Virus record (IMG/VR): IMGVR_UViG_3300007351_000041
Span: 1 to 33,651 of that record
DNA length: 33,651 bases
Strand: one strand, 5' to 3'
Source: a virus
Made by a program: the position numbers and the translations under genes. The notes under the pieces are model-generated. The model was not told the DNA's origin. It worked only from the letters and a program-made list of their open reading frames with translations, and made no database searches. Below, piece after piece: positions 1 to 33,651 of this stretch (position 1 is the stretch's first letter; every line of letters begins with the position of its first letter).

Positions 1-13
1 GCTCTTCCGATCT
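1..13. other. Illumina adapter remnant at the left contig end
   Basis: The first 13 bases, GCTCTTCCGATCT, are the 3' end of the standard Illumina adapter and the reverse complement of the motif that begins the right-end adapter. They are not phage DNA. The T of the adapter joins the first two phage bases to make a false in-frame TAA at 13-15, which makes the first gene look closed on its 5' side. Confidence 0.96.
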
Positions 14-3018: not shown

Positions 3019-3516
3019 ATGTCTCTTTTTTGGGCGAATTTATATTCTCTGGTTATTATCGCACAAACTCAAGTTGATCCTATATCTGGAGGGGCTGGTT
3101 GGGTAGGCGCTGGTTTATTGGGGTTGGTACTTGGTTGGTTGTTACTAAAACATCTTCCAGATAAGGATAAATACATCAAGGAAATAATTAAAGAACATGG
3201 AGAAACTGTTAATAAAGTTACAGAAAAACATGAGATAACAGTTAAGGGAGTTGCTGAAAAACATGAACAATCTCTAAAGTTAGTTGCTGAAAAACATGAG
3301 TTAGCTATAAAACAAGCAGCTGAAAAACATTCAGCTGCGGTAGAGGCTGCTGCTCAAAGAACTGAACTAGCAGTAAATAAAGTTGCTGAAAAACATGCTG
3401 AAATAGTTACAGCAATGGCTACTACATTTACAGCATCGTTAGAAAATGTAGTTAATCATTGTAAAGATGAAATGGATAGAATTGCTAGTTATTGGCAACA
3501 AAGTAAAAATAATTAA
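3019..3516 (+). CDS. Membrane-anchored hendecad coiled-coil protein
   Basis: A 165-residue protein. Residues 1-16 are hydrophobic and a clear transmembrane segment lies at about 27-45 ('GLLGLVLGWLLL'). From about residue 60 onward it consists of 11-residue repeats with the core 'VAEKHE': VTEKHEITVKG, VAEKHEQSLKL, VAEKHELAIKQ, AAEKHSAAVEA, then degenerate copies to about residue 150. Eleven-residue periodicity marks a hendecad (nearly straight) coiled coil, so it is probably an oligomeric rod anchored in the inner membrane. Small phage membrane proteins in such positions are often holins or spanins, but nothing here proves that. An ATG 4 bases upstream (3015) opens a different frame that stops after 20 codons. 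It leads the unit that includes the S8 protease. Confidence 0.68.
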   Translation: MSLFWANLYSLVIIAQTQVDPISGGAGWVGAGLLGLVLGWLLLKHLPDKDKYIKEIIKEHGETVNKVTEKHEITVKGVAEKHEQSLKLVAEKHELAIKQAAEKHSAAVEAAAQRTELAVNKVAEKHAEIVTAMATTFTASLENVVNHCKDEMDRIASYWQQSKNN

Positions 3517-3528
3517 GGTATTTTAAAT

Positions 3529-4578
3529 ATGAGCGATTTTGTACTTCCACCTTTTACTGTTGAACAACAAATGATGTCTCTTACAGAGACTATGGATTGG
3601 TCTTTGTCATTATATGGAATTCCAAATGCTTGGAAGAGAAGTAGAGGTAAGGGTCAATTAGTTGCTGTTCTTGATACAGGAGTTGATAAAAGACATTATG
3701 AACATGGGGATCTTAAAAATTCAGTAGTAGCAGCTAAGGATTTTACAAATTCTAGAGTTGGTTTTTTTGATTTGAATGGACATGGGACACATACTGCTGG
3801 AACTATTGGTGCAAGAGAAGATAATAATGGTGTTGTAGGGGTGATGCCAGAATCTAGTTTGGCAATTGGTAAAGTTCTTGGTGATAGTGGTGGTGGTAGT
3901 GGTCAACAGGTTGGAGATGGTATTGATTGGTCAGTCAGTATTGGTGCTAGTGTAATAAGTTTGTCATTAGGTTCTAATTATGCTGACCCAATAATGTATC
4001 AAGCTATTAAGAGAGCAGTAGAAGCAGGATGTCATGTTATATGCGCTGCAGGTAATGAAGGTAAAATTACAGGTGAAAATACTGTGGGATATCCTGCTAG
4101 ATGGGCAGAGTGTGCAGCTGTTGGAGCAGTAGATGAAAATGGTAGAGTTGCTTCTTTTTCTTCTAGAGGTCCAGAAGTTGATATTTGTGCTCCTGGCGTC
4201 AATATATTGAGTACATATTTGAACGGTGGATATGCTAAGTTATCTGGAACAAGTATGGCAACTCCGTTTGTTTCTGGAGTTGTGGGTTTACTTTTAAGTA
4301 CTGGCGTTAAATTGTCTCCTAAAGCCTTGATTGAAATGCTTAGAAGTACTGCAAGAGCTTGGAAGCCAGGCGATGATTGTGATGGTTCGGGGGTAGGTTT
4401 GATTAATCCTGAAACGTTATTGACACCACCTCCACCTCCACCACCTCCACCTCCACCACCTCCGCCTTCTGTACCAGAACCTCCACCAAATTTGGAGATG
4501 GTTAAAATTGGTCCTTTTTCAGTTTCAGTAGAAAAAATAAGAGATAAAACTGGATTATTTATTTGTGTGGGGGGATAA
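3529..4578 (+). CDS. Subtilisin-like serine protease (S8 family) with polyproline linker
   Basis: A 349-residue protein with the complete S8 catalytic set: Asp49 in 'AVLDTGVD', His85 in 'GHGTHTAG', oxyanion Asn176 in 'CAAGNEG', and Ser242 in 'GTSMATPFVSG'. The catalytic domain fills about residues 22-297. It is followed by 14 consecutive prolines (300-313), a further 'VPEPPP', and a short tail of about 30 residues (from residue 321). There is no obvious signal peptide and only a short N-terminal stretch in place of a classical prodomain. It is therefore probably made in the cytoplasm, or acts in virions or after lysis. Subtilases are uncommon in phages, whose prohead proteases are usually of other families. 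Roles could include cleavage of phage structural proteins or of host proteins. Its stop overlaps the next start (TAATG). Confidence 0.93.
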   Translation: MSDFVLPPFTVEQQMMSLTETMDWSLSLYGIPNAWKRSRGKGQLVAVLDTGVDKRHYEHGDLKNSVVAAKDFTNSRVGFFDLNGHGTHTAGTIGAREDNNGVVGVMPESSLAIGKVLGDSGGGSGQQVGDGIDWSVSIGASVISLSLGSNYADPIMYQAIKRAVEAGCHVICAAGNEGKITGENTVGYPARWAECAAVGAVDENGRVASFSSRGPEVDICAPGVNILSTYLNGGYAKLSGTSMATPFVSGVVGLLLSTGVKLSPKALIEMLRSTARAWKPGDDCDGSGVGLINPETLLTPPPPPPPPPPPPPPSVPEPPPNLEMVKIGPFSVSVEKIRDKTGLFICVGG

Positions 4579-4707: not shown

Positions 4708-5091
4708 ATGCCTTATGCACCGCCAACGTTAAGTCAAGCTCAAACAGCATTAAGTGATGCCCTTGAGCCACTTACAACTGGAAAGATTAATACCCCAAAG
4801 CAAATTTGGGCATTAGAAACATTGCAGTTGTTTGCTATTGCAAACATATTTAGTATACCAGAATCTGGAATTGTAGCTGCACAAGCTACCCCAGAATCTA
4901 AAGTTGAGTTAACAGATGAGCAAATGCTTGTGTTGTTAAATCAGTGGAATACCAGTGGTAATATGTATACTACAATTGCCCATCCTCAAAATGCTAATTT
5001 ACTAGCTGGTATTAATTGGGCACAGCTTATTAAGATGATATTGCCTCTATTGTTGAATGAAATATTGAAGTATTTAGATACTTCTAAGTAA
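4708..5091 (+). CDS. Hypothetical protein with C-terminal hydrophobic helix
   Basis: A 127-residue protein, helical by composition, Gln- and Ala-rich in its first half, with a hydrophobic C-terminal stretch ('IKMILPLLLNEILKYL', about residues 109-124) that could be an amphipathic or membrane-associated helix. There is no signal peptide. It is the last gene before a 276-base gene-free stretch that holds the structured RNA at 5102-5218. I do not recognise the family. Confidence 0.6.
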   Translation: MPYAPPTLSQAQTALSDALEPLTTGKINTPKQIWALETLQLFAIANIFSIPESGIVAAQATPESKVELTDEQMLVLLNQWNTSGNMYTTIAHPQNANLLAGINWAQLIKMILPLLLNEILKYLDTSK

Positions 5092-5367: not shown

Positions 5368-7266
5368 ATGAAGAAATATTGGAGAGTTTTGTTGTTGGCA
5401 CTGTTTACTCCTTTTTTATTGGCGTTTTCAGGAGAAAACGAGGTATCTTCTTTTTCTGGGGACAATAATAAACAGCCAAAAGTAGAAAATCAATTTGTTA
5501 AAGTTGACCAACCAATAAGTGGTCCCCCTGCTCCCAGAGTTGATGTCCCAGTTAATAATGCTGTGAGACTTTCTATTCCGTTCGATGCAGTTTCAGTTGT
5601 TCAGCAAGATGCGATTGAAGTAGAACAAAAAGATCCTTTTTCTCTCCCATTTATTCGGTGGATATGGGTTCAATCTGGAGACATAAATGACTTTCAAGCA
5701 TTATCAGACACATTGCAAAAAATCAGCAGAAGCGAAGTGCCAATACAGCCAGTCATACGGGGAATTGTCGCCAGGATTGATTTGCGGTGGTTTGCCGCAA
5801 GCAAAGAGGATCTCCAAGATTGGATCAATCTTTGGGAAAACTTTCAGTTTGATCCGTGGTTCTCAACAAACATCACACAGAATACCTTAGCATTACTATC
5901 TGAAGATTATAAGCAGAATAAGATAGTTCAGGTTTGGAAAAATAGAAGAGTTTGGGATAAAGACAAACAAATATGGGTTAATACAGGTGAGAAAGTAATT
6001 GCTGATGTTAAAATTGCTAGTTTAAAGGATGTTCTTGTAGTTCGGTCTAATGCTGATCATTTGAAAAAAAGTGGAATTGAAATGCTACAATTTGGAACCA
6101 AAACTTTGGCTCCAGTTGTAGATAGTAGGTATTTTACTGGTAGAGTATTATCTACTATTAAAGGAAAAATAAATGGAAAAGATAGTGTATTTAGTACCAT
6201 TTGGGGTGGTTTGTATTATGAGTTTTCAGGTATTAGAAAGGCGACCACTAAAGGGATCAAAAATGATTTTGATCAATTGTTGTTTGATTTAGGAGTTGGA
6301 AGTAAAGAAGAAGATTATGAACAATTGTTCGAAAGAACACGCGGTGGATTAGAAGCTGCCGGAATGTTTCATTCTAATGTCACTGGAAAACCTAGAAGAA
6401 TTATTTGGTTTCCAATAGAAAAGATGAGATTGACTCAGGGCATACCTGCAATATTTATAACTGAAGATATTAAAGATGAAGATGTAGATACTGATGCTCA
6501 TCCAATTTTAAATTTGGTGAAGTTTAAACCAGATGCATATGAAGTTATTTTTGTAAAACTAAATGGTCAACAGGGGTATGCCATATTTAATGGGAAGAAA
6601 GAGTTATTAGATGAAGCCACTCAGGATGTGGTATCAGATCACAAGATTCCTGTTCCTAATACTACTAGATTACAGTCTGCAATAAGTTGTATTAGATGTC
6701 ATGGTAGTGATGATGGTTGGAAGCCATTTTCTAATGATGTTAAAACTTTATTGTCTAGGAAGAACAATAACAATTTGTTAGATGTGTTTGGAGATACTAG
6801 TAAAAGTGAGTTGAATAAACCAATTTTTGACACATTGTTGAATATTGCTGGAAAATATGAAGGGGATCCTACTGTATTGATGATGGATTTGAGAAGAGCT
6901 TATGCTAAAGGAGTTTTAAGAGCTACTGGCCCTTGGAAAAATGATAATGGACAACTGAATACTGTTAAACTTTCTTCTGAAAGAATAGCAGCTGTATACG
7001 CAGAAGACAGGTATAATTTAATTGATGCTGAACTTGCGTTAAGATATTTAGGATATCCACAAGCTCCAAAAGGAAAAGAAGTAGAAGTTCTGAATAAAGT
7101 ATTACCACCAGTTAAATTGAATATTGGTGGAATAGTTCCTGAAGACGCGAGAATAGGAGCTTTAAAAAGAGGTATAAAGATTACACCAAGAGATTGGGCA
7201 TTTGTTTATTCTTTTGCACTAACAAGGGCAATGGAAACAGCCTCTCAAATGAAGGATAAGAAATGA
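5368..7266 (+). CDS. Exported cytochrome c-like protein with one CXXCH heme motif
   Basis: A 632-residue protein. Residues 1-20 form a signal peptide (MKKYW then a hydrophobic run), so it should be exported. A single heme-c site CIRCH lies at residues 441-445 (bases 6688-6702). It is preceded by 'AYEVIFVKLNGQQGYAIF' and 'DVVSDHKIPVPN', the pattern 'GEVIF.LPNGLQGY...IVSD...SCM.CH' that I remember from long secreted planctomycete proteins. The upstream 'IVARIDLRWF' and 'NADHLKK' segments also fit that family. If heme is attached, this needs the host's periplasmic cytochrome maturation system, and an electron-transfer or redox role follows. GAGGAGG lies only 2 bases before ATG; the frame is open upstream to 5224 without an ATG, so a longer form from a rare start is possible. 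It overlaps the next gene by 4 bases. Confidence 0.8.
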   Translation: MKKYWRVLLLALFTPFLLAFSGENEVSSFSGDNNKQPKVENQFVKVDQPISGPPAPRVDVPVNNAVRLSIPFDAVSVVQQDAIEVEQKDPFSLPFIRWIWVQSGDINDFQALSDTLQKISRSEVPIQPVIRGIVARIDLRWFAASKEDLQDWINLWENFQFDPWFSTNITQNTLALLSEDYKQNKIVQVWKNRRVWDKDKQIWVNTGEKVIADVKIASLKDVLVVRSNADHLKKSGIEMLQFGTKTLAPVVDSRYFTGRVLSTIKGKINGKDSVFSTIWGGLYYEFSGIRKATTKGIKNDFDQLLFDLGVGSKEEDYEQLFERTRGGLEAAGMFHSNVTGKPRRIIWFPIEKMRLTQGIPAIFITEDIKDEDVDTDAHPILNLVKFKPDAYEVIFVKLNGQQGYAIFNGKKELLDEATQDVVSDHKIPVPNTTRLQSAISCIRCHGSDDGWKPFSNDVKTLLSRKNNNNLLDVFGDTSKSELNKPIFDTLLNIAGKYEGDPTVLMMDLRRAYAKGVLRATGPWKNDNGQLNTVKLSSERIAAVYAEDRYNLIDAELALRYLGYPQAPKGKEVEVLNKVLPPVKLNIGGIVPEDARIGALKRGIKITPRDWAFVYSFALTRAMETASQMKDKK

Positions 7267-7640
7267 TTAATGATTGTGTTGAATGTAATGAAGTTGGTTA
7301 TTCTATTGGAAATGTATTTGTTCATTTGTCAAGTACTATGATGTTTGGGAATTATGGGTTGGGTAATATAAGTATATCGTCTAGCGATGATGAAAAGCTA
7401 AAAGTGGAGGACATTAAAAAACTTTCCCCGAAGTCAGGAGATCTTTTGGTTTTTAAGTTTAAAGATCGTGTTGAAGGTTTGTATGAAAAGCTTAGAAATC
7501 ATTTAGATGACTGGGGATTTAAAGATATACATTTTGTTATTATGATAGAGGGTAATGATGTTTCTTGTCTAGATGAGGGGGAGATGGAGAAATTTGGATG
7601 GATTCGCAAACGTGAAAATCGTGGTTTTGAATTTTTATGA
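7263..7640 (+). CDS. Hypothetical cytoplasmic protein between the two cytochrome-like genes
   Basis: A 125-residue protein whose ATG overlaps the preceding stop (ATGA). It has a CVEC pair at residues 5-8, an alternating strand/helix pattern ('SGDLLVFKF', 'HFVIMIEG'), and no signal peptide. Its coupling to the upstream gene and its place between two exported CXXCH proteins suggest a linked role, but I recognise no family. Confidence 0.6.
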   Translation: MINDCVECNEVGYSIGNVFVHLSSTMMFGNYGLGNISISSSDDEKLKVEDIKKLSPKSGDLLVFKFKDRVEGLYEKLRNHLDDWGFKDIHFVIMIEGNDVSCLDEGEMEKFGWIRKRENRGFEFL

Positions 7641-7659
7641 TCCTTATCTAGAGGTATAT

Positions 7660-8691
7660 ATGCGTTGGTTCCTTTTAGTTTTTGTAGTGTTAATTGCTAT
7701 TTTGGTTAGTATTCCTTCAGCTCAATCAGCTGAAGTAGTTAATAGTGATGGATATGTGCATGCTGATGGCTTTTATGTCAAAAATGGTGTGACTCATACT
7801 CGTGATATTGTTTGGTATAAGAAATGGGTTTGGGTTAATGCTTGTTATAAGGGTGGTTGCTATGTAAATGGTTATTGGACATACACTTGGGAATACTATT
7901 ATGAATATACTCCAGTAAAGCTGCCAGCTGCTTCTGATCCTGAATGGCGCATTAAGTTGTTAGCTATTGCTGCGGCTCGTGACAAGGCCGAAGGCAAGTT
8001 GCGTTATTATGCCCAAGAACAGAATCATTTCTTGGAAGCTGTTAATGCTTTGGGTCTTCATGGTAATTTTAGATATGAGGCTTATGGTCGTAACCCAGTA
8101 GCTCCTACTGGATATGGTAATTTACAATTATCTCATGCTGGTATAAATGGAAATACTATTTATGGATATAGCTATTCACAGGTTGCTGATGCTTACGGAC
8201 ATACTGATTTAAACGCTTTATATCAACAGTCTGGGTTCCTTACTAAGAACGCGCAGCAGCTTGCAGGACAAGCTAATAGCGAGTTTAACGCTTTAATCCA
8301 GCAGGCTGGTGGAAACGCTGCTAGGATTGCTGAGATACTTGCTAAAGGTAAGGTTGGAAGGGATGTTATCGAAAGTATCAAGGGAAGTCCAGAAACTAGA
8401 GTTGAAACAAAAGTTAATGGAACTGTAACTGTTCCAAATACTGTTAATGCGTCTAGTGATGTTGTTCAGAGTTTCTTGAAATTAAGTGGACCAGCAACAT
8501 GTGTTGCTTGTCATAGTGGAAATAAGTTGGAAGGTGGATTTGATGTTTCTAGGATTCCAACTATGGAACCACAAGAAATAATTGAAAAAGTTCTACCAAG
8601 ATTAGTGGATAAGAATGAAAAGAATAGAATGCCAAAAGGACTTCCTGCTTTAACTGGTGAACAAGTTAGACAATTTATTGGTGGAAATTAA
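7660..8691 (+). CDS. Second exported cytochrome c-like protein, C-terminal heme domain
   Basis: 343 residues from ATG 7660, chosen over an upstream in-frame start at 7573 because GAGG lies 5 bases before it and because it opens with a textbook signal peptide (MRWFLLVFVVLI...AQSA, cleavage near residue 26). The mature N-terminal part is rich in Tyr and Trp. The middle (about 88-250) is helical and Ala/Gln-rich. The C-terminus is a small class I cytochrome c domain: CVACH at residues 281-285, 'GGFDV', and Met324 in 'NRMPKG' as likely distal heme ligand. The pattern 'C.ACHSG....GGFDVS' recalls planctomycete cytochrome domains. It is encoded 19 bases after the previous gene and probably forms a functional unit with the 632-residue CXXCH protein. 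Confidence 0.82.
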   Translation: MRWFLLVFVVLIAILVSIPSAQSAEVVNSDGYVHADGFYVKNGVTHTRDIVWYKKWVWVNACYKGGCYVNGYWTYTWEYYYEYTPVKLPAASDPEWRIKLLAIAAARDKAEGKLRYYAQEQNHFLEAVNALGLHGNFRYEAYGRNPVAPTGYGNLQLSHAGINGNTIYGYSYSQVADAYGHTDLNALYQQSGFLTKNAQQLAGQANSEFNALIQQAGGNAARIAEILAKGKVGRDVIESIKGSPETRVETKVNGTVTVPNTVNASSDVVQSFLKLSGPATCVACHSGNKLEGGFDVSRIPTMEPQEIIEKVLPRLVDKNEKNRMPKGLPALTGEQVRQFIGGN

Positions 8692-8946
8692 ATGTGTGTG
8701 TATTCTATGGTAATGGATCACTACTATGAAAAGTTTCAAGAAAAGAAGTCCATTCCATGGCCCCCTTACGTTTATCCACCGCAGCCAATGATCACTCAGG
8801 AAGAGATTGAGGAATTTAGGAAGTTATTAGAACGCGCAAAGGAATATGATAAGAAGAATAATGAGCCTGATTGTGAACTGGAAGAGAAGCGTAAAAAGGT
8901 GAAGGATCTGGCTAAAGAGTTGGGTGTTGAGATAGCGTTTTTGTAA
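8692..8946 (+). CDS. Small charged helical protein
   Basis: An 84-residue protein starting directly after the previous stop. A Pro/Tyr-rich segment ('PWPPYVYPPQP', residues 23-33) is followed by a strongly charged helix with Lys/Glu repeats that may form a coiled coil ('EEIEEFRKLLERAKEYDKK'). A second ATG at 8707 is a possible alternative start. I recall similar small proteins from phage genomes but can give no function. Confidence 0.6.
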   Translation: MCVYSMVMDHYYEKFQEKKSIPWPPYVYPPQPMITQEEIEEFRKLLERAKEYDKKNNEPDCELEEKRKKVKDLAKELGVEIAFL

Positions 8947-8964: not shown

Positions 8965-9264
8965 ATGAGAAAGTTTGTGTATGGTTTGATCGCAGCTGCA
9001 GCTCTGTTTATTGCAGCACCAAAGGCTCAGGCAAGTAATGTGTTTTTCGTAACTGATTCATTTACTCCTGTGACTGTGGTTTCTACTAATTTTGGAACAA
9101 CTACTTTTTTCACTCCTAATAACAGAGTGTTTGTCAGAGGGTTTAATCCTTTTGTCAGAGTTAACAATGTTGTAGTTGTGCAAAATCGTGGATTTTTCAG
9201 AGACCGTGTGGTTGTTCGTGGGTTTCGTGGTCGTGTAGTTGTAAATAACGTTTTTGTTCGGTAA
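8965..9264 (+). CDS. Small secreted Val/Arg/Phe-rich protein
   Basis: A 99-residue protein with a clear signal peptide (MRKFVYGLIAAAALFIAA...AQA, cleavage near residue 23). The mature part is almost entirely made of alternating V, R, F, N and G residues ('VFVRGFNPFVRVNNVVVV', 'RGFRGRVVVNNVFVR'), with no cysteine. The composition predicts a basic beta-rich extracellular or envelope-bound protein. It is the last gene of the exported block and is followed by a terminator-like hairpin. Function unknown. Confidence 0.62.
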   Translation: MRKFVYGLIAAAALFIAAPKAQASNVFFVTDSFTPVTVVSTNFGTTTFFTPNNRVFVRGFNPFVRVNNVVVVQNRGFFRDRVVVRGFRGRVVVNNVFVR

Positions 9265-11944: not shown

Positions 11945-12730
11945 ATGCCAATAATAATTAAAGTATGTGAGTTTTGCTCTGTATTATTTAATTGTCACAA
12001 TCCTAAACGTAGATTTTGCGGTCTCAAATGCAGCTCTAAATATTCAGGAAGTTTGAAAAAAGGTAAAAAGCTATCCCAAAAACATAGAGAACGTCTTAGT
12101 GTTTCTGCTAAACGTAGGAATAAATGGGTTGGAAAGGATAATCCTAATTACCAAAATAAAACGTTGAGTAGGGAGGATGTGTATAATAGATGGAAAAAGT
12201 CTATGAAAATAAGGGGCCAGCCTTGGGGAGAAAAAGAACGCAAGGAACATTCTGAAAGAATGTTAGGACCAACAAATGGAATGAGAGGAAAATCTCATAC
12301 AGATAAATACAAAAGAAATATGTCTGAATTAAAAATTCAACAATATAAGGATGGAATTGTTAAATTCAGATCTAGTCATTCTTCAAAAGCAGAATTAGAA
12401 GTAGGAGAACTATTAAATAGTTGGGGACTAGCTCCTGTTCCCCAGTTTCAAATTAGAGGATTTACATACTTTTACGACTTTTACATTCCATCTTTAAATC
12501 TAATATTGGAATTTAATGGTGATTATTGGCATGCAAACCCAAATAAATACAAGTCTGGAACTTTAATCAAATTTATGAATCAAGATTCTGTATTAGTGGA
12601 TGAAGTTTGGGAAAGAGATTCAATTAAAACAAAAACAGCTTTGGATAATGGATTTAAAATAGTTGTGTTGTGGGAGAATGAATTCATGTTAAATGGTGAG
12701 AAGGCGTTGAGGGGATTGTTAAAAATATGA
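11945..12730 (+). CDS. Free-standing homing endonuclease, Vsr-like nuclease domain (copy 1)
   Basis: A 261-residue protein. The N-terminal zinc finger uses C8, C11, C25 and C29. NUMOD3-like DNA-binding repeats follow ('LKKGKKLSQKHRERLSVSA', then 'GMRGKSHTDKYKRNMSE' near 112-128). The C-terminal nuclease (about 145-261) has 'FYDFYIPSLNLILEFNGDYW', which places Asp178 and Glu189 as in Vsr/PD-(D/E)XK enzymes, with 'RDSIKTKTALDNGFKIVVLW' as the following helix and strand. It is wedged between the phosphoesterase (0-base gap) and the HAD gene (4-base overlap). Homing endonucleases cut an allele lacking them and spread by repair. It differs from the other three endonucleases in this window in the nuclease domain. 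Confidence 0.82.
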   Translation: MPIIIKVCEFCSVLFNCHNPKRRFCGLKCSSKYSGSLKKGKKLSQKHRERLSVSAKRRNKWVGKDNPNYQNKTLSREDVYNRWKKSMKIRGQPWGEKERKEHSERMLGPTNGMRGKSHTDKYKRNMSELKIQQYKDGIVKFRSSHSSKAELEVGELLNSWGLAPVPQFQIRGFTYFYDFYIPSLNLILEFNGDYWHANPNKYKSGTLIKFMNQDSVLVDEVWERDSIKTKTALDNGFKIVVLWENEFMLNGEKALRGLLKI

Positions 12731-16023: not shown

Positions 16024-16113
16024 ATGTATTTGTTGAATAATTTGATTTTTGAAAGGCGACTGGAGGAGTTGAATATTCCAGTTTATAGAAAATGGCAGAA
16101 GATAACAGTTTAA
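16024..16113 (+). CDS. 29-residue leader peptide overlapping the terminase start
   Basis: ATG 16024 is preceded by a very strong ribosome-binding site (AAAGGAGGAGG, 16007-16017). The ORF encodes 29 residues beginning MYLLNNLIFERRLEELNIPV and ends at TAA 16111-16113, overlapping the large-terminase start (16092) by 22 bases in another frame. The terminase ATG itself has no ribosome-binding site, and TAG at 16086 blocks any earlier in-frame start. This is the geometry of a leader ORF used for translational coupling. Peptide function unknown. Confidence 0.5.
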   Translation: MYLLNNLIFERRLEELNIPVYRKWQKITV

Positions 16114-18113
16114 ATCCAAAAGAAAACGATTTACGTCAGGCAGCAGCGCAAGAACTTCTTAGAAGACAAAAAGCACGTACAAATCTTATTGATTTTACCC
16201 GCTATACGTTTCCCACTTATATAGCGGAACCAGCTCACGAATTAATTGCCAGTAAACTAGATGATGTCATCAACGGTCGTATAAAACGTTTGATGATTTC
16301 GATCCCCCCACAACACGGAAAATCAGAGCTCGCATCAGTTAGAATGCCGGCGTTTTGGCTTGGTAAAAGACCAGATGATCCTATAATTTTATGTTCTTAT
16401 GGTGCTAGTTTAGCTGAATCTAAATCTAGACAAGCTAGACAAGTTGTAGAATCAAGAGAATATAATCTTTTATTTCAAGGCGCTAGTACCAGAAAAGACA
16501 GTAGAAGTATATCTGAGTGGCAAATTAATCAAGGAAGAGGTTATTTAGTAGCAGCTGGTGTTTCTGGTCCAATTACTGGAAAAGGTTGTATGTTGGGTAT
16601 TATTGATGACCCTTTGAAAGATTGGCAAGAAGCACAATCTCAAACTATTCGAGATGCATGCTGGGATTGGTATAGAACTACATTTCTTACTCGTGTGTGG
16701 GAAGCTGGAGCCATTATTGTGATTCAAACAAGATGGCATGAAGATGATTTAGCTGGTAGATTGATAAAAGAACAGCCTGGTAAGTGGGAAGTTTTGCGGC
16801 TTCCAGCCATTGCCGAAACTCAAAATGAGCGAGATGAAAATGATGAATTTTTAGGTCTTTCAAGAGGTAATGTAGATCCATTAGGTAGATCTCCTGGTGA
16901 TCCTCTTTGTCCAAGACGGTATAGTTTAGAAGCGTTAGAATCACTTCGTAATGCTGTAGGTCCTAGTGGTTTTGCTGCATTATATCAAGGTGTCCCCAGA
17001 GCTACTGAAGGTAATCAATTTCATAGAAATTGGTTTCAATTAACAGAATCTGTACCTTATGAAGCTAAAAGAGTAAGAGCTTGGGATAAAGCTGGTACTA
17101 AAGGTGAAGGTGACTATACTGTTGGTGCACTAGTTGCTATGCATGAAGGAAAGTTTTATGTAGAGGATATCGTTCGAGGAAGGTGGCTTGCTGGTGAGCG
17201 CGATAAAATAATGCGCACCACTGCGGAACAAGATGCTACTAGGTATAAAAACAAAGTAGTAATATGGGTTGAGCAAGAACCAGGTTCTGGCGGTAAAGAT
17301 AGTGCTCAAAGTTCTATTCAACTCCTTGCTGGTTTTCCTGTATATGTTGATAAAGTATCTGGTCCTAAAGAAGTTAGAGCTAATCCATTTGCCGCGCAGG
17401 GGTTTGCTATGAATGTATATATGAAAAGAGGACCATGGAATACTGATTTGTTGAATGAATTTTTAGCGTTTCCAAATGGTAAACATGATGACATAGTAGA
17501 TGCTGTTTGTATGGCGTTTAATAAGTTAGCCATTGGAGTTGGTTTGACCCCAACAGTTAGGGTATATGGATTAAAGACAGGCGGTTTGAACCTTGGCGCT
17601 AAGATTCCAAAAAAACAAATTAGAATAGCTGTTTGTAGTAAAGAAGAATTGGAATTTTTACATTTAGATCAAGAGTGTGTTCTTATATCAATAGTTGATC
17701 CTAACACAACTCATACAGTTCCCCCACATAGATGTGAAAGAATGTTAGGCAGAATAGAACTATCATTTGCTGATATAGATCCAAATTCCAATGAGTGTAC
17801 AGATTGGAGTAAAGAAATAGAACCTTGGGGACAAACTGCTGAAGAATTAATGATGAGTCGTGAACAAGCTAGGAAAATGTGGGGTTTTATTTTGAAGAAA
17901 AGAGATGTACCTCCCATAACTTATATTATTCAAGATAATGGAAATGGGGATAGAAGAGCATTAAGTATGGCATTAGGAATCTCAGATGGATTGGGATTTG
18001 TAAAAGGTAAAGCTGTATATTTGGTGAATAATCCAGATTTCATTTGTGAGGAAGAACCATCAAATAAGCATATATATCAATTGTGTAAATCTACTAGATA
18101 CATGGTAATTTGA
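16092..18113 (+). CDS. Large terminase subunit fused to a degenerate tyrosine-phosphatase-like domain
   Basis: 673 residues. The ATPase has Walker A 'IPPQHGKSE' (71-79), 'IILCSYGASLAESKSRQ' as the adenine/coupling region, and Walker B 'MLGIIDDP' (Asp172, Asp173). The nuclease has Asp332 ('AWDKAG'), Glu394/396 and the end motif 'HDDIVDA' (465-471). This motor packages DNA into proheads and cuts concatemers. Residues about 509-670 are an extra domain. 'IRIAVCSKEELEFL', 'VLISIVDPN', 'IELSFADIDP', 'SREQARKMWGFILKKRD' and 'TYIIQDNGNGDRRALSMALG' follow in order the layout of small tyrosine/dual-specificity phosphatases. In that layout the active site 'HC..G.SRS' becomes Q-D-N-G-N-G-D-R-R: the Cys is Asp615 while Arg621 remains. 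The domain should therefore be catalytically dead and perhaps binding. The start is discussed under the leader ORF. Confidence 0.92.
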   Translation: MAEDNSLNPKENDLRQAAAQELLRRQKARTNLIDFTRYTFPTYIAEPAHELIASKLDDVINGRIKRLMISIPPQHGKSELASVRMPAFWLGKRPDDPIILCSYGASLAESKSRQARQVVESREYNLLFQGASTRKDSRSISEWQINQGRGYLVAAGVSGPITGKGCMLGIIDDPLKDWQEAQSQTIRDACWDWYRTTFLTRVWEAGAIIVIQTRWHEDDLAGRLIKEQPGKWEVLRLPAIAETQNERDENDEFLGLSRGNVDPLGRSPGDPLCPRRYSLEALESLRNAVGPSGFAALYQGVPRATEGNQFHRNWFQLTESVPYEAKRVRAWDKAGTKGEGDYTVGALVAMHEGKFYVEDIVRGRWLAGERDKIMRTTAEQDATRYKNKVVIWVEQEPGSGGKDSAQSSIQLLAGFPVYVDKVSGPKEVRANPFAAQGFAMNVYMKRGPWNTDLLNEFLAFPNGKHDDIVDAVCMAFNKLAIGVGLTPTVRVYGLKTGGLNLGAKIPKKQIRIAVCSKEELEFLHLDQECVLISIVDPNTTHTVPPHRCERMLGRIELSFADIDPNSNECTDWSKEIEPWGQTAEELMMSREQARKMWGFILKKRDVPPITYIIQDNGNGDRRALSMALGISDGLGFVKGKAVYLVNNPDFICEEEPSNKHIYQLCKSTRYMVI

Positions 18114-20140: not shown

Positions 20141-21886
20141 TTGGGTAGACTTGCAAATCTAATGAAGTCAGGAATAACAACTCAAAGGTATCTTGGGGTT
20201 GGTCAAAACCCACGTACGCTTCGTTCAGAAGTTGAGTTAGGCAGATCCCGTTGGCGTGAAGCATTTCATAACAAAGAAGAACCAAATAGAGAAACTCCTA
20301 AAGTAATACCTGGTGGATCTTGGGGTAGATCTTCATTATCCACGGATGCCAGTGTTCGTAGATTAGTGGAGGCAATGAGATCGCAAGCTCCCGGAGGTTG
20401 GAGCGACAACCGCTGGGAGCAATCACAACACTTCGTTGGTATTACATATGCTGCCATTCATAGAATTGGCGAGCAGATGGCACAATCTGAATTTCAAGTG
20501 TATGTTAAAGATGATAATCATCAAGATGGTAAAAGACCCGTTAAAAGAGGAGAGCCTGGTTGGGATTTAATTAAGTTGTTGGAAAAACCCAATCATGATG
20601 ATACGTTTGGTGAGATGTTATATAAGATAAATTTACAAATGGATTTAACTGGAATGTCATTAACTTGGATGGTTCCTAACGTTATGGGAATGCCAATGGA
20701 ATTGTATTCAATTCCAACTTCTATAGCTATTCCTCAACCAGCTATCAATCCAGATTATCCTGATGGATATTATAGAATCCAACCAGTATATCCATATGGA
20801 CCATTCTCTTCTTATCCTACACCTGCATCAGCTGTTGGTGCTCCAATTCCAGCACAGTGGATGCTAAGAATTAAATATCCGCATCCAATATTACCATATG
20901 ATGGATATTCTCCTCAAACAGCTATGAGGCTTCATCTTGATGAGATCGAGCAGATGGATAGAAGCCGTTGGTATAATATGAAGAGAGGTATTAGTCCTTC
21001 TGCAGTTCTTCAATTTTCAAAAGATAATGCCCAACCATTACCAGAAGAAGAAATAGCTCGTATTAGAGCAGAAATGGAAAATACATTCCAAGGTCCAGAA
21101 AATGCAGGACAATTTTATGTCGCAACGCCAGGTGCTGAGTTACAACCCTGGGGAAATAAACCCATTGATATGGATTACCAGAGTGGATGGGATCAATTGG
21201 TTTCATTCGTACTGGGCGCAGGTTTTGGCATTACTAAACCAGCTGCTGGTATGATCGAAGATTCTAGTTATTCCACTTTGTTTGCAACATTAAAACAATT
21301 ACATCTTATTACTATTGGTCCTAAATGTAATAGAATTGCTTCTAAATTTACTCGTCATCTTGCTCCGTTTTATGGTGATGATTTAATTGTTGAAATAAAA
21401 GCTCAACGAATTGATGACCATGAAGTACTTTCAGGCAAGCTTTCTCAACTGGCTGGCAATAGGGCAATGACAATTAATGAGCTTCGTAAGGCATTAGATT
21501 GGCCAATGACTGATGAAGAGTGGGGTAAAGAAAGAGTTGGTGAGCCACCTGCGCCTCCAGGTATGGAAGGAATGCCACCAGGTGGTGGAGGAATGGGTGG
21601 ATTAGAAGCTATGATGGGTGGTGGAATGCCAGGTATGGAAGGTGGTAATCCAGAAGAAATGGCTGCTCAAGGCGGAGAAGTTGATGCTCTAGGTGGAATG
21701 CCATTACCTCCTGATCTTGATGAAGAACCAACTGAAGTTACTGAATCAAGACCATTAGCTGGTAAGCTCGGACTTGGTGCATTAGGGCCGCGTAAGAGAT
21801 TCGATACTGAAGTGGTTGATATTAAAAAGAAACTTAGGGCTCGTTACAAGAAATTAGCCAAAATTAGTTCTAACGGAGTACATTAA
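20141..21886 (+). CDS. Portal protein
   Basis: 581 residues from TTG 20141. Two ribosome-binding motifs precede it: GGAGGAGGAGG (20115-20125) and GGTGAG (20131-20136); the second gives normal spacing to the TTG. The body matches HK97-type portals. A clip/stem region 'ITYAAIHRIGEQMAQSEFQV' is followed by 'LIKLLEKPN', a 'GISPSAVLQFSKDN' segment, and 'GITKPAAGMIEDSSYSTLFA' near the crown. The portal ring is the prohead vertex through which the terminase pumps DNA. The C-terminal 110 residues are Gly/Met/Pro-rich with 'PPGMEGMPPGGGGMGG', then a basic end. No head protease or capsid gene follows in the usual place. Confidence 0.88.
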   Translation: MGRLANLMKSGITTQRYLGVGQNPRTLRSEVELGRSRWREAFHNKEEPNRETPKVIPGGSWGRSSLSTDASVRRLVEAMRSQAPGGWSDNRWEQSQHFVGITYAAIHRIGEQMAQSEFQVYVKDDNHQDGKRPVKRGEPGWDLIKLLEKPNHDDTFGEMLYKINLQMDLTGMSLTWMVPNVMGMPMELYSIPTSIAIPQPAINPDYPDGYYRIQPVYPYGPFSSYPTPASAVGAPIPAQWMLRIKYPHPILPYDGYSPQTAMRLHLDEIEQMDRSRWYNMKRGISPSAVLQFSKDNAQPLPEEEIARIRAEMENTFQGPENAGQFYVATPGAELQPWGNKPIDMDYQSGWDQLVSFVLGAGFGITKPAAGMIEDSSYSTLFATLKQLHLITIGPKCNRIASKFTRHLAPFYGDDLIVEIKAQRIDDHEVLSGKLSQLAGNRAMTINELRKALDWPMTDEEWGKERVGEPPAPPGMEGMPPGGGGMGGLEAMMGGGMPGMEGGNPEEMAAQGGEVDALGGMPLPPDLDEEPTEVTESRPLAGKLGLGALGPRKRFDTEVVDIKKKLRARYKKLAKISSNGVH

Positions 21887-24385: not shown

Positions 24386-27316
24386 ATGTTAGGTCCAACA
24401 AGTTGGGAGAATACTATTCTTAGTTCACTTTCACTAACTTCTGGTCAAGTCCAGTCTGGTAATATTGGTAATAATGCTGTTACCAGTGGTAACGTTGCAT
24501 CTGGACAACTTGCTTGGGTACACCTTGGCTCTGGAGCTGTTCAATCAGGGAATATAGCTTCTGGTCAGATTCTTACGTTCCATCTTTCTAGCGGTGCTGT
24601 TCTTAGTGGTCAAATTGGTAATAATGTAGTTGTTAGTGGTAATATAGCATCTGGTCAGATATTTACCTTACACATAGCAAGTGGTGGATTATTGTCTGGA
24701 GCGTTTGGTTCTGGACAAATAGGACTTAATCATATAGCTTCTGGTGCGGTAGGAGCAGGAAGGGTTGGTAGTGGTGCAATCCAAAGCGGCCAAATAGCAA
24801 GTGGTCAAGTATTCACTCTTCATATTGCTTCTGGTGGAATAGGCTCAGGAGGAATTGGTTCTGGACAAATTGGATCAACACACCTTGCCAGTGGTTTAAT
24901 TGGTCTTGCTAGTGGTTCTGTTACCTCAGGGTTAGTAGGCAATAACACCATAAATAGTGGTAATTTATCTTCAGGCTCAGTTAGTTGGGCGCATCATAGT
25001 TCTGGAAGTGTTCGTTCTGGAAATTTATCAGATGGTTCTGTTACTTCTGGTAATATAGCATCTGGTCAATTATTCACTTTACATATAGCAAGTGGTGGAA
25101 TACTTTCTGGAGGTATTGGTTCTGGTCAGATAGGAAGACATCATTTGTCTTCAGGTTCAGTTAATTCTGGACATATTGCTAATGCTGCTGTTACAAGTGG
25201 TTCTATTGCTAGTGGTGTATTAACTGTATTTCATATTGCTAGTGGTGGTTTTGGCAGTGGTGTATTGAACAGTGGTGTTGTTGTATTAAACAATTTAGCA
25301 AGTGGTGTAGCTCTACCAGTTTCTGGTAGTGTTCAACAATTCCAATTAGGTTCCGGCGCAGTAAATTCTGGGCAAATAGCTTCAGGTGCTGTACAAGGTA
25401 GAAATGCTGGCGGAACTTACCATATTGCTTCTGGATCAATTAGTACGTTAGATATTGGTTCTGGAAGCATAGTATCTGGATTAATAGCAAGTGGCCAAAT
25501 TGGTCCAAATCATTTAGCTTCTGGTTTAATAATATCTGGTGCTTTCTTATCTGGTGGAATAACTTCTGGGAATATTAACAGCGGTCAAGTTGGATTCCCC
25601 CATCTTGCAAATAACTCAGTGTTGTCTGGAACAATCGGATCAGGTGTAATTAGTTCAATTCACCTTGCTAGTGGTTGTGTACAGTCTGGGGATATTGGAA
25701 GTGGTTCAGTGGGAGGAGCCAACCAAAGTGGAGCCAGAGGTATAGTATCAGGTTCTATTGGAACATTTGATTTAGGCTCCGGTGTTGTAACTTCTGGACA
25801 ATTGGGAGATAATGCGGTTGGTTCTGGTAATATTGGATCAGGTCAAATTGGAGCAATGCATGTTGCTAGTGGTGGTTTGTTTAGTTCTGGTTTAATTGGA
25901 ACGTATAGCATTGCTAGTGGAACGGTAGTTACTAGAGCAGGATATGTTACTCCATATAATAGTGGTTTGCTTGCAACAATAATTACCGAAGAGCCAATTT
26001 CTGGCGTAAGAGCAGTAACAATATCTCAGTCTGGCGCAGTTCGTATTGCCATGGCTTCTGTAAGTGGAAGAATGCCAGCAATTGGAATTGTTGCAGATAA
26101 TGTTGCTTCTGGTATTCAGGTTAATGTTTATTCTATAGGAGCATTCCAACTTAGTTCTGGAATGAACGATTTTAGTGGCTATTTGGGACAACCATTAGTT
26201 GTTGGTCGTTCTGGTCAAATAGTTACTTATTCTGGGGCTTGGAACTCTGGTGGATTAATGTCTGGGGACATTACTCAATTAATGGGTTCTGTTGGTGGCA
26301 ATAGTGGATTTATAGAAGTAGACACTCAACGCCCAACTGTAATTACTTCTGGTCAAATAGGCAGTGGATATCTTGGAAATGCATCTGTTTTAAGTGGTAA
26401 TCTTGGTTCTGGTCAAGTGTTTACCTTCCATATTGCTTCTGGTGGTTTACTATCAGGTTCAATTGGCTCAGGTCAAATATTTACTCTAAGTGTTGCTTCT
26501 GGCGGTTTGCTTTCTGGTGCTTATGGTTCTGGACAATTAGGTACTGCTCATATTGCTAGTGGTGGTTTAGGTAGCGGGGCAATAGGTTCTGGCCAGATAT
26601 TCACTCTTCATATAGCATCTGGCGGTATTGGTTCTGGTGGAATAGGCTCAGGTCAAATATCAACTCTACATGTAGCAAGTGGCGGATTTGGCAGTGGAGC
26701 CATTGGCTCAGGTCAAATATTCACCTTACATGTTGCTAGTGGAGGTATTTTATCTGGAGGTTTGGGTTCTGGACAAATAGGCAGAATGCATCTTAGTTCA
26801 GGATCAATCAGTTCTGGACACATTGCTAATGCTGCTGTTACATCTGGAAGTATAGCTTCTGGTGTTGCTGTAGCTTATGCTAGAATTGGATTTGATGATA
26901 CTTGGGTAGCTGGAGAAATGATTAGTGGGTTGTGCCCAGTATGTATCAATATTTCTGGTGGGAATTCGTTATTGATTGCTAATGCGGCATCTGGGTTGAG
27001 ATTACCTGCAATTGGAATTTCAATAACTAATGCTGCAAGTGGAGCTTCTGTTAGTATTGTAACAAACGGTTTGATTACCAATCTTGCAAGTGGTTTACTT
27101 TCTAGTGGTTTTAATGGAAGAAATTGTTATGTTGGTAGCGGGCTTGTAATTGATTTGTCGGGTTTTGCAGGAAATGGTTTTGGACCTTCACCAGCTGTTG
27201 CTGGTGCTTCTGGTAATATGGTTCAAAGATTAGGAGTGAAAGTATCTGGTGGAATTTTTGTTAATATAGGCGAAGTAACTTCAGGATTAATAAGTGGTTT
27301 GTTGGGGCAATTTTAA
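24386..27316 (+). CDS. Giant SG-repeat fibre protein
   Basis: 976 residues built on a decapeptide repeat that begins with SG. One pair of decamers is 'SGQIFTLHIA' then 'SGGLLSGAFG', a 20-residue super-repeat ('IASGQ(I/V)FTLHIASGG'). Repeats fill about residues 15-515 and 640-840. They alternate with two related non-repeat domains: about 520-635 ('MPAIGIVADNVASGIQVNVY') and the C-terminal 145 residues ('LPAIGISITNAASGASVSIV', 'GNMVQRLGVKVSGGIFVNIG'). The strict periodicity, high Gly/Ser and lack of Cys in the repeats suggest a trimeric beta-structured fibre. ATG 24386 has no strong ribosome-binding site; the 109-base upstream gap shows nothing convincing. Confidence 0.75.
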   Translation: MLGPTSWENTILSSLSLTSGQVQSGNIGNNAVTSGNVASGQLAWVHLGSGAVQSGNIASGQILTFHLSSGAVLSGQIGNNVVVSGNIASGQIFTLHIASGGLLSGAFGSGQIGLNHIASGAVGAGRVGSGAIQSGQIASGQVFTLHIASGGIGSGGIGSGQIGSTHLASGLIGLASGSVTSGLVGNNTINSGNLSSGSVSWAHHSSGSVRSGNLSDGSVTSGNIASGQLFTLHIASGGILSGGIGSGQIGRHHLSSGSVNSGHIANAAVTSGSIASGVLTVFHIASGGFGSGVLNSGVVVLNNLASGVALPVSGSVQQFQLGSGAVNSGQIASGAVQGRNAGGTYHIASGSISTLDIGSGSIVSGLIASGQIGPNHLASGLIISGAFLSGGITSGNINSGQVGFPHLANNSVLSGTIGSGVISSIHLASGCVQSGDIGSGSVGGANQSGARGIVSGSIGTFDLGSGVVTSGQLGDNAVGSGNIGSGQIGAMHVASGGLFSSGLIGTYSIASGTVVTRAGYVTPYNSGLLATIITEEPISGVRAVTISQSGAVRIAMASVSGRMPAIGIVADNVASGIQVNVYSIGAFQLSSGMNDFSGYLGQPLVVGRSGQIVTYSGAWNSGGLMSGDITQLMGSVGGNSGFIEVDTQRPTVITSGQIGSGYLGNASVLSGNLGSGQVFTFHIASGGLLSGSIGSGQIFTLSVASGGLLSGAYGSGQLGTAHIASGGLGSGAIGSGQIFTLHIASGGIGSGGIGSGQISTLHVASGGFGSGAIGSGQIFTLHVASGGILSGGLGSGQIGRMHLSSGSISSGHIANAAVTSGSIASGVAVAYARIGFDDTWVAGEMISGLCPVCINISGGNSLLIANAASGLRLPAIGISITNAASGASVSIVTNGLITNLASGLLSSGFNGRNCYVGSGLVIDLSGFAGNGFGPSPAVAGASGNMVQRLGVKVSGGIFVNIGEVTSGLISGLLGQF

Positions 27317-27318
27317 TT

Positions 27319-28251
27319 ATGGCTAAGAATTATTTGTTTTGTAGAAAATGTCCCAATCCAGATAACAATGAAAATTGTAAACTTTTAATTGGTTATAAAT
27401 ACGAAAATAAAATGTGGGATGCTGAGGAAAGACAAACTTTTTGTAAGAGTTGTACATTTCTGGGAAACAGGAACCCATTCTTTGGCAAGAATCACACCGA
27501 AGAAACTAAAGAAGCAATGTCTAAAATTCGTATTGATCTTTGGGAATCTGGTGTGTTTGATACACCTGAAGTTAGATTTAATATGAGTCAGTCTCATATT
27601 GGAAATAAATCTACTTCTGGTCAAGAATTATCCATAAGGCGAAGATTTGCTATTAGGAAAAGAATGATGGGTGAAAATAATCACTTTTATGGTAAAAACC
27701 ACACTCATGAATCAAGGAAAAAGATTTCTAAATCTAGAGAAGGAAAATATTTTGGTGAGAATAATCCTTTTTATGGTAGAAAACACTTAGAAGAGACTAA
27801 AGAATTATGTAGAGAAGGAGCATTAAAAAGCAAAGGATCTGGTCATGGAATAAGTGGTAAATATAATGGGCTACATTTTAGATCTACATGTGAGTTGTTG
27901 TTTTTAAAACAAAACTACACCAACACCATGGTTTCGGCAGAGGCAAAAGGATTCAGGTGTGAGTATATAGATTCTACTGGAAAATTAAGATATCATTATC
28001 CCGATTTTGTAGATGGAAATGTAGTTTATGAGATCAAACCATTTGGATGGGAAAGAGATTCAAGGTGTGTTGATGTACCATTGAAAAGAAAAGCAGCTGA
28101 AAAAATAATTACTGATAAAGGATTTAAATATGTTTTTATTGAAATGAAATGTATTTCCAAGTCTGAGGTGTTTGCTTTATTCGCGCAAGGTAAAATTGAT
28201 CTGGACACCAAGTGGAAAAAACAGTATTATGAAAAACTTGGAGTTTATTAA
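27319..28251 (+). CDS. Free-standing homing endonuclease (copy 3)
   Basis: 310 residues. The zinc module C11/C20/C42/C45 is nearly the same as in copy 2. Three NUMOD3-like repeats follow: 'RNPFFGKNHTEETKEAMSK', 'ENNHFYGKNHTHESRKKIS', 'ENNPFYGRKHLEETKELC'. The nuclease has 'YHYPDFVDGNVVYEIKPFG' with Asp229, Glu238 and Lys240. It sits 2 bases after the fibre stop, and its own stop overlaps the next start, so it is inserted precisely between two genes. The 'KWKKQY' end is also found in copy 2. Confidence 0.82.
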   Translation: MAKNYLFCRKCPNPDNNENCKLLIGYKYENKMWDAEERQTFCKSCTFLGNRNPFFGKNHTEETKEAMSKIRIDLWESGVFDTPEVRFNMSQSHIGNKSTSGQELSIRRRFAIRKRMMGENNHFYGKNHTHESRKKISKSREGKYFGENNPFYGRKHLEETKELCREGALKSKGSGHGISGKYNGLHFRSTCELLFLKQNYTNTMVSAEAKGFRCEYIDSTGKLRYHYPDFVDGNVVYEIKPFGWERDSRCVDVPLKRKAAEKIITDKGFKYVFIEMKCISKSEVFALFAQGKIDLDTKWKKQYYEKLGVY

Positions 28252-30164: not shown

Positions 30165-31001
30165 ATGGCTGGTGAAATAAAACATTGTGAAAAATGTAAT
30201 TGTGAACATGATGGTTCTTATGGCTCAGGTAGATTTTGCTCTAAACATTGCGCCTATGGTAGAAATGTGAATGGAAATAAGAATCCCATGTATGGTCAGA
30301 CAGTATATGAGATTTGGGTAAATAAGTATGGTAAAGAAGTTGCGAACATAAAATGGAGAAACTGTGTGATTTCTCAAAAGGGTAAGGGAACTGGCCCCAG
30401 GCCTAATCAGTCTGTTAAGGTTTCTGGTTGTTTAAATCCTATGTGGGGTCGTACACATTCTGATGGGGCAAAAGCTGCAATATCCCATAAAAATACAGGC
30501 AGAAAACATTCAATTAAGTCTAACATTCAAAAATCTATATCTGGAAAAAGAGCTTATGCTGAAGGTAGATTTAAGTTTTCCGGAGAGAAAAGATCAATAA
30601 GAGGATATTGGAAAGGATTGTATTATGGAAGTACATCTGAATTGATGAGAATGATGAATCATCCAAATTTATCTTTATTGAAAAGAGGCCCATCGATATC
30701 ATATGAGTGGTTTGATGGTTCTCACCACACATATTTATCAGATTTCTTGAATGTGTTGTCAAACACAATTGAAGAAATAAAATATCCAGGCAAACAACTA
30801 TCTGAGTTAGAGCAACTTAAAGTTGAAGCAGGTAAAAAATATGCAAAAGAGAATGGTTTAAATTATAATGTGTTGTACGAACATTCAATACCCAAGGAAG
30901 AAATGTTTATTTTAAGGAAACATTATATGGTTACTTTAGATTCTAAACATGAAACAGAATATCAAATATGGTTGGAAAGGAGAAACAAACGTGGCTGGTG
31001 A
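30165..31001 (+). CDS. Free-standing homing endonuclease (copy 4), inserted at a gene start
   Basis: 278 residues. Zinc module C8/C11/C25/C29; NUMOD3-like repeats ('GNKNPMYGQTVYEI', 'CLNPMWGRTHSDGAKAAIS'); nuclease 'YLSDFLNVLSNTIEEIKYPG' with Asp193, Glu204 and Lys206, the same layout as copies 2 and 3. Its first five codons (MAGEI) copy the first codons of the downstream gene (VAGEI), and its last codons and stop are read from the second copy of that 13-base repeat. So the endonuclease gene lies between two copies of the target's start region and uses the original start. Confidence 0.82.
   Translation: MAGEIKHCEKCNCEHDGSYGSGRFCSKHCAYGRNVNGNKNPMYGQTVYEIWVNKYGKEVANIKWRNCVISQKGKGTGPRPNQSVKVSGCLNPMWGRTHSDGAKAAISHKNTGRKHSIKSNIQKSISGKRAYAEGRFKFSGEKRSIRGYWKGLYYGSTSELMRMMNHPNLSLLKRGPSISYEWFDGSHHTYLSDFLNVLSNTIEEIKYPGKQLSELEQLKVEAGKKYAKENGLNYNVLYEHSIPKEEMFILRKHYMVTLDSKHETEYQIWLERRNKRGW
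30166..30178 (+). repeat. Insertion-site direct repeat, left copy
   Basis: TGGCTGGTGAAAT is identical to 30992-31004. It is the original 5' end of the interrupted gene and now supplies the start codons of the endonuclease. Confidence 0.75.
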
Positions 31002-32475: not shown

Positions 32476-32476
32476 T

Positions 32477-33611: not shown

Positions 33612-33651
33612 AGATCGGAAGAGCGTCGTGTAGGGAAAGAGTGTAGATCTC
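33612..33651. other. Illumina adapter at the right contig end
   Basis: The last 40 bases begin with AGATCGGAAGAGCGTCGTGT and continue through the known read-through adapter. This is a library artefact in the assembly. It fuses false residues to the last ORF and shows that the contig ends are not natural genome ends. Confidence 0.97.

What the first reader, a model, noticed from the sequence alone, without database searches (positions are those of the whole stretch)
5368..8691. Phage-encoded pair of exported CXXCH (cytochrome c-like) proteins
Two signal-peptide proteins, 632 and 343 residues, each carry one heme-c motif (C441-H445; C281-H285 with Met324 as plausible axial ligand). They are separated only by one small coupled gene. 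Phage-encoded c-type cytochromes are rare. Both recall planctomycete secreted families. They could reroute respiration, act at the envelope after infection, or be virion or lysogenic-conversion proteins.
Basis: partly seen in the sequence, partly recalled or inferred. Interest (0 to 1): 0.82.

Follow-up and report, generated by a model that had tools for sequence, protein, structure and literature searches.

The report
Phage-encoded pair of exported heme proteins
This phage, and at least fifteen other phage contigs from 19 to 595 kb, carry side by side two secreted proteins with heme-c attachment sites, which bacteria of the Planctomycetota and others carry fused as a single protein; the pair is a conserved, undescribed viral module that probably works in the host's cell envelope, but its task is unknown.

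Summary
Two signal-peptide genes (5368-7266, 632 aa, CIRCH; 7660-8691, 343 aa, CVACH) flank one small gene in a phage contig.

The 343-aa C-terminus is a true class-I-like cytochrome c. Across 15 divergent phage homologues the only invariant residues besides Met1 and one Gly are Cys-Cys-His and Met324-Pro325, and their profile reaches solved cytochromes c.

The 632-aa protein is not a cytochrome c fold. It belongs to an uncharacterised heme-motif family (no Pfam, NCBIfam or PHROG model) of Planctomycetota, Poribacteria and Alphaproteobacteria. It has a confident predicted structure (pTM 0.82) with no PDB counterpart. Tyr283, Arg343, Asp367, Glu392, Asn399 and the CXXCH are invariant in 49 relatives, but no second His or Met is.

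In cells, most members carry the same cytochrome domain fused N-terminally; phages encode the two parts as adjacent genes. The pair recurs in 15 further phage contigs, often beside a protease and a Val/Gly-rich exported protein. The phage proteins form one clade.

The bin that holds the contig shows no detectable cytochrome-c maturation gene, so it is probably not the host.

Most likely this is a split two-heme redox unit acting in the host envelope during infection, possibly linked to lysis. Function is inferred only.

The parts
5368..7266 (+). Exported 632-aa heme-c-motif protein of the planctomycete/Poribacteria/alphaproteobacterial 'SCxxCH' family (phage clade)
6688..6702 (+). Codons of C441-I-R-C444-H445, invariant in 49 relatives
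7660..8691 (+). Exported 343-aa protein with a C-terminal monoheme cytochrome c domain (about residues 262-343)
8500..8514 (+). Codons of C281-V-A-C284-H285 (heme c attachment)
8629..8634 (+). Codons of Met324-Pro325, invariant in 15 phage homologues: predicted axial Met ligand
7263..7640 (+). 125-aa gene between the pair, translationally coupled (4-base overlap); found only in this phage's cassette; weak match to phrog_10352 (unknown function)
8965..9264 (+). 99-aa exported protein rich in VVV/RGF repeats; counterpart follows the pair in other phages (similar composition; E=2.5e-4 to L169)
3529..4578 (+). Subtilase (S8) without signal peptide; other phages have a papain-like, C39-like or matrixin protease at this place
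4708..5091 (+). 127-aa protein with hydrophobic C-terminus, positional (not proven homologous) counterpart of the 134-226 aa protein upstream of the pair in other phages
3019..3516 (+). 165-aa protein with one N-terminal membrane segment and coiled coil (holin-like layout; no family match to holins)
8692..8946 (+). 84-aa gene directly after the pair; phrog_10166, unknown function

Best explanation
The two genes encode the two halves of an exported two-heme redox unit. In planctomycetes and some other bacteria a cytochrome c domain (His/Met heme, electron carrier) and a second heme-c domain of another fold are fused in one secreted protein. In these phages the same two parts are made as separate, adjacent, Sec-exported proteins. 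The 343-aa protein would shuttle electrons. The 632-aa protein would bind a heme c whose distal side has no conserved His or Met, with invariant Tyr, Arg, Asp, Glu and Asn, as expected of a catalytic or ligand-sensing heme. Both would be loaded with heme by the host's cytochrome-c maturation machinery and act in the host's periplasm or envelope during infection, together with the protease and the Val/Gly-rich exported proteins that often travel with them. Shown by sequence: homology, residue conservation, split versus fusion, recurrence, one phage clade. Inferred: heme loading, electron transfer between the two, catalysis, site and time of action. The substrate is unknown.
For: 632 aa: hmmsearch of a profile of 36 cellular members gives E=3e-10 (Z=1e5) and hhalign 97-99%; BLASTP to a Neorhizobium 'c-type cytochrome' E=5e-6; R97, P249, Y283, R343, D367, E392, N399, C441, C444, H445, G450 invariant in 49 sequences; AlphaFold pLDDT 81, pTM 0.82, about 90 around the motif. 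343 aa: C281, C284, H285, M324, P325 invariant in 15 phage proteins that are mostly 14-21% identical to the window's; profile hits PDB cytochromes c, best E=7e-4, and planctomycete cytochrome domains in 169 of 392 genomes. Split/fusion: the phage cytochrome profile matches the N-terminal domain of the cellular fused proteins (best E=1.5e-9; hhalign 98%, E=1e-14; reversed sequences give nothing); nearly all cellular frames hold two CXXCH and several hold four. Recurrence: the pair is adjacent in LR756511 (595 kb), L125, L158-L167, L169, L170 and L175; the nearest, L169 and L170, match the 632 aa at E=2.5e-93 and 8.6e-87 and the 343 aa at 4.6e-37 and 6.5e-22. Tree: 17 phage proteins on one side of a branch, SH-aLRT 99.
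Against: Heme binding of the 632-aa protein rests on an invariant CXXCH only: no heme was modelled, and no structural match exists in PDB or BFVD. The window 343-aa protein itself is below Pfam's PSCyt1 cut-off (15.1 versus 22 bits), and its own model is poor (pLDDT 51). Physical pairing of the two proteins is inferred from adjacency and fusion. The organism in whose bin the contig lies has no detectable PF01578 gene, so the host that the model needs (one that matures cytochromes c) is not shown. The tree has long branches and a selected set of cellular sequences.
Confidence: 0.62

Rival explanations
1. Envelope-exit (lysis) module: a cytoplasmic protease of interchangeable class acts as the wall-degrading enzyme, a small membrane/coiled-coil protein as holin, and the exported heme pair changes the redox state of envelope proteins or the membrane potential so that a protein-rich, cross-linked wall can be opened.
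For: Proteases of unrelated classes stand just upstream of the pair: S8 subtilase here, papain-like in L161 (Pfam C1, just below cut-off) and, by similarity of sequence and position, in L124/L125/L158/L159/L175, C39-like in L169 (weak), M10 with peptidoglycan-binding domain in L167. The subtilase has no signal peptide, like many endolysins, and a membrane plus coiled-coil protein precedes it. In L170 the pair sits between tail genes and integrase, a place where lysis genes and morons are common. No canonical endolysin was found among the window genes scanned.
Against: No holin or endolysin family match; L160, L162 and L164 show no protease directly upstream; the window contig is incomplete, so a normal endolysin may be missing; no reason in sequence why lysis should need heme. 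That planctomycete walls are disulfide-rich protein is recalled, and a paper search for it found nothing.
Confidence: 0.2
2. Auxiliary metabolic module: the pair taps or feeds the host's periplasmic electron transport (respiratory support, or detoxification of peroxide or nitrogen oxides) to keep the infected cell energised.
For: His/Met cytochrome c carrier plus a heme protein with enzyme-like invariant residues; planctomycete genomes carry several copies of the cellular family (2-10 matching places each); phage-encoded SoxD with a cytochrome c motif is a published precedent (PMC8190135).
Against: No neighbouring metabolic gene in the cassette; the cellular family has no known substrate; association with proteases and repeat proteins is unusual for such modules.
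Confidence: 0.22
3. Superinfection-exclusion or lysogenic-conversion (moron) proteins that coat or alter the host surface.
For: Exported products, VVV/Gly-rich exported partner, L170 has an integrase about 2 kb downstream.
Against: Present in huge phages and in contigs with no integrase in the parts read; no copy of the window-type protein found at E<=1e-40 in 392 planctomycete genomes, so no lysogen was seen.
Confidence: 0.1
4. Virion components.
For: In L165 the pair lies between a baseplate J gene and a tail fibre gene.
Against: Nearly every member begins with a signal peptide, which does not fit assembly in the cytoplasm; in the window it lies 7 kb before the terminase, among small and nucleotide-metabolism genes.
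Confidence: 0.06

Closest known systems
Uncharacterised secreted two-heme fusion proteins of Planctomycetota, Poribacteria and Alphaproteobacteria (e.g. Zavarzinella formosa L116; Neorhizobium petrolearium WP_227705619 'c-type cytochrome')
   Same: Both halves homologous: N-terminal cytochrome c and the SCxxCH domain
   Different: Fused in one chain in cells, two genes in reversed order in phages; phage SCxxCH proteins form their own branch; the window protein is about 18-20% identical to the planctomycete ones aligned
PSCyt1 (PF07635) and class I cytochromes c (CcoP, bc1 cytochrome c subunit, c6)
   Same: CXXCH, Met-Pro ligand motif, short single domain
   Different: Long low-complexity or coiled N-terminal part; window copy below the Pfam cut-off
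Phage-encoded SoxD (PMC8190135)
   Same: Phage gene with cytochrome c motif
   Different: SoxD is part of a known sulfur pathway and was reported from two datasets; here a dedicated pair of unknown pathway in 16 distinct contigs, the window included
Diheme cytochrome c peroxidase / MauG
   Same: One carrier heme (Met ligand) and one heme without conserved Met/His distal ligand would be a similar division of labour
   Different: No Pfam or PDB sequence match, no fold match; resemblance is of logic only

Membership tests
Class I cytochrome c / PSCyt1 (343-aa protein) | CXXCH heme attachment motif | tested here: met
   invariant in 15 phage homologues
Class I cytochrome c / PSCyt1 (343-aa protein) | Downstream axial Met in an MP motif, followed by a C-terminal helix | tested here: met
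   M324-P325 invariant; helix 333-340 in the model (low confidence)
Class I cytochrome c / PSCyt1 (343-aa protein) | Score above Pfam's gathering cut-off | tested here: not met
   15.1 of 22 bits for the window, 21.1 for L169; the phage profile reaches PDB cytochromes at E=7e-4, so kinship holds though the Pfam label does not
Class I cytochrome c / PSCyt1 (343-aa protein) | Covalent heme, typical spectrum | not testable with these tools
   needs expression
SCxxCH two-heme fusion family (632-aa protein) | Significant profile match over the middle domain | tested here: met
   E=3e-10 at Z=1e5; hhalign 97-99%
SCxxCH two-heme fusion family (632-aa protein) | Invariant residues Y283, R343, D367, E392, N399, CXXCH, G450 | tested here: met
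   all present; invariant in 49 of 49
SCxxCH two-heme fusion family (632-aa protein) | N-terminal cytochrome c domain in the same chain | tested here: not met
   absent in all phage members; supplied by the neighbouring gene
Diheme cytochrome c peroxidase / MauG | Recognisable CCP/MauG sequence or fold | tested here: not met
Phage lysis cassette | Holin and endolysin or spanin genes | tested here: inconclusive
   protease and membrane protein in place, no family match
Auxiliary metabolic gene of a known pathway | Homology to an enzyme of known substrate | tested here: not met
   no Pfam, NCBIfam, PHROG or PDB match for the 632 aa

The most novel reading that the evidence does not exclude
Phages of bacteria with unusual, protein-rich walls such as planctomycetes carry a redox-assisted exit or entry system: a split two-heme exported enzyme, with an interchangeable protease, that chemically opens or modifies a cross-linked protein envelope. 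This would be a kind of phage-host envelope attack not described before.
Probability: 0.18. Interest if true: 0.93.

Novelty: new variant of a known kind. Interest (0 to 1): 0.77.

Why it matters
Phage-encoded c-type cytochromes are rare. Here the sequence evidence is for a dedicated, conserved two-gene heme module in small and huge phages (contigs up to 595 kb), on a branch of its own. It gives a large family without any Pfam, NCBIfam or PHROG model, of predicted new fold, and a natural experiment (fused in cells, split in phages) that points to its two working parts. It may also serve as a marker for phages of planctomycetes, whose viruses are hardly known (inference). If linked to the adjacent proteases, it would open a new question on how phages leave or enter cells with unusual walls.

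Tried and rejected
Simple searches with the window proteins against IMG/VR, INPHARED, GTDB genomes and 188 relatives of the bin found nothing. The family was reached with a bait consensus that I wrote from memory of planctomycete sequences; it served only to find real members, and all later profiles that carry conclusions use real sequences (on). The Neorhizobium gene it found had also come up, at E=8, in the earlier unbiased plasmid search. A profile of the cellular N-terminal cytochrome domains did not find the window 343-aa protein; the reverse search with 15 phage sequences did connect them. Foldseek on the poor 343-aa model was meaningless. Prophage copies in planctomycetes: nine contigs with short cytochrome frames checked, none has the pair; none of 392 genomes has a window-type protein at E<=1e-40 (there was no positive control, so absence is not proven). 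Chimera with bacterial DNA: rejected, since the same cassette occurs in other phages and composition is even. L168, a viral contig with a fused gene, groups with Poribacteria and was not counted as phage. Homology of the 127-aa protein to the small upstream proteins of other phages is too weak to claim.

Full report
The window is one contig (C14) of a 1.4-Mb metagenome bin and is phage: large terminase at 16092-18113, portal at 20141-21886, tail fibre at 24386-27316, dCMP deaminase, nucleotidase and nucleotide kinase genes. At 5368-7266 and 7660-8691 lie two genes for exported proteins with one CXXCH each, with a 125-aa gene between them. Among 1,326 ORFs of 80 other phage loci none combines a signal-peptide-like start and a CXXCH.

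The 632-aa protein had no relatives by ordinary search. I suspected kinship with a planctomycete family and used a bait consensus from memory to find real members, then a two-row alignment to collect 37 loci in Alphaproteobacteria, Planctomycetota and Poribacteria. A profile of the domains from these real sequences finds the window protein at E=3e-10 and no other window ORF; hhalign gives 97-99%. In an alignment of 49 members eleven positions are invariant, among them Cys441, Cys444, His445, Tyr283, Arg343, Asp367, Glu392 and Asn399; no second His or Met is conserved. AlphaFold gives a confident model (pLDDT 80.8, pTM 0.82) that matches nothing in PDB or BFVD.

A planctomycete member led to a 595-kb uncultured phage, LR756511, which carries two members; after one of them lies an exported protein with a C-terminal CXXCH and MPP, then a VVVRNG-repeat exported protein, the same order as in the window. 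Phage-based alignments then found the family in 15 IMG/VR loci and the cytochrome in 5. Reading them gene by gene, the heme-motif protein is directly followed by a signal-peptide cytochrome in LR756511, L125 (with its duplicate L126), L158-L167, L169, L170 and L175: 15 distinct contigs besides the window. L169 and L170 are nearest to the window (E=2.5e-93 and 8.6e-87 for the 632 aa; 4.6e-37 and 6.5e-22 for the 343 aa), and stand in clear phage surroundings: portal in L169; tape measure and integrase in L170. In the tree all 17 phage proteins fall on one side of a branch against 35 other rows, SH-aLRT 99, with a long-branch warning.

The 343-aa protein: in 15 phage homologues, 14-37% identical to it, the invariant residues are Cys281, Cys284, His285, Met324, Pro325, Gly242 and Met1. 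The profile finds PDB cytochromes c (bc1 subunit, CcoP, c6; best E=7e-4) and planctomycete cytochrome domains. This is a class-I-like, His/Met cytochrome c domain on a long N-terminal stem of low predicted confidence.

Fusion and split: most cellular members have a cytochrome c domain N-terminal to the SCxxCH domain in the same chain. The phage cytochrome profile matches just that domain (E=1.5e-9 for L098, 1.6e-9 for L116; hhalign 98%, E=1e-14; reversed sequences give nothing). So the phages encode as two neighbouring genes what cells make as one protein. This is the main ground for saying that the two work together.

Surroundings: a protease often precedes the pair but its class changes: subtilase here, papain-like in L161 and by similarity L124, L125, L158, L159 and L175, C39-like in L169, matrixin with peptidoglycan-binding domain in L167, an intein-containing gene in L166 whose flanks read as papain-like. 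In L165 a baseplate gene lies just upstream. In the window a membrane plus coiled-coil protein precedes the subtilase. This fits an envelope task and leaves open a lysis role, but no holin or endolysin family was matched.

Host: PF01578 (heme handling in cytochrome c maturation) is found in none of 31 genomes, the bin and its relatives, while 9 of 14 control genomes ring. The relatives are mostly 0.6-1.4 Mb genomes, so the bin is a reduced-genome lineage (Patescibacteria-like, my inference). A phage that depends on heme c is unlikely to have such a host; the contig is probably misbinned. A planctomycete host is plausible from the family's distribution but not shown.

Literature: no paper in the open library that I searched describes this cassette; the huge-phage paper (PMC7162821) does not mention cytochromes in its main text. 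Phage-encoded SoxD is the nearest precedent found (PMC8190135). Subscription literature was not searched.

Shown: reality, export signals, homology, invariant residues, recurrence, split/fusion, one phage branch. Inferred: heme loading, electron transfer between the two, enzymatic role, envelope action. Unknown: substrate, time of expression, host.

Noticed in passing
window 1-13 and 33612-33651: Illumina adapter remnants at both contig ends: the RecA gene (100-582) is cut at the start and the last residues of ORF 32426-33646 are adapter, not phage.
   Followed up: partly
window 11945-12730, 27319-28251, 30165-31001: Three HNH/homing-endonuclease-like genes in a 34-kb contig.
   Followed up: no
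L166:7971-9953: The gene in the protease place of this phage is interrupted by an intein (Hint and LAGLIDADG domains); flanks read as papain-like.
   Followed up: no
L120:7063-8969 (LR756511): A second, very divergent SCxxCH paralogue (CIACH) in the same megaphage, next to an exported C39-like protein and without a cytochrome partner.
   Followed up: partly
L098:2890-5622: Planctomycete frame with a Ser/Thr-kinase-like part N-terminal to the cytochrome c and SCxxCH domains: suggests a sensor use of the same heme unit in cells.
   Followed up: no
L082:1-6872 (Neorhizobium plasmid): A multi-heme family member follows genes for a caspase-like protein, OmpA and a ferredoxin-reductase-like protein.
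   Followed up: no
window 3529-4578; L169:3168-4103; L167:9111-9935: Proteases of three classes each end in a Pro-containing linker and a short beta-like tail; may be a shared docking tail.
   Followed up: no
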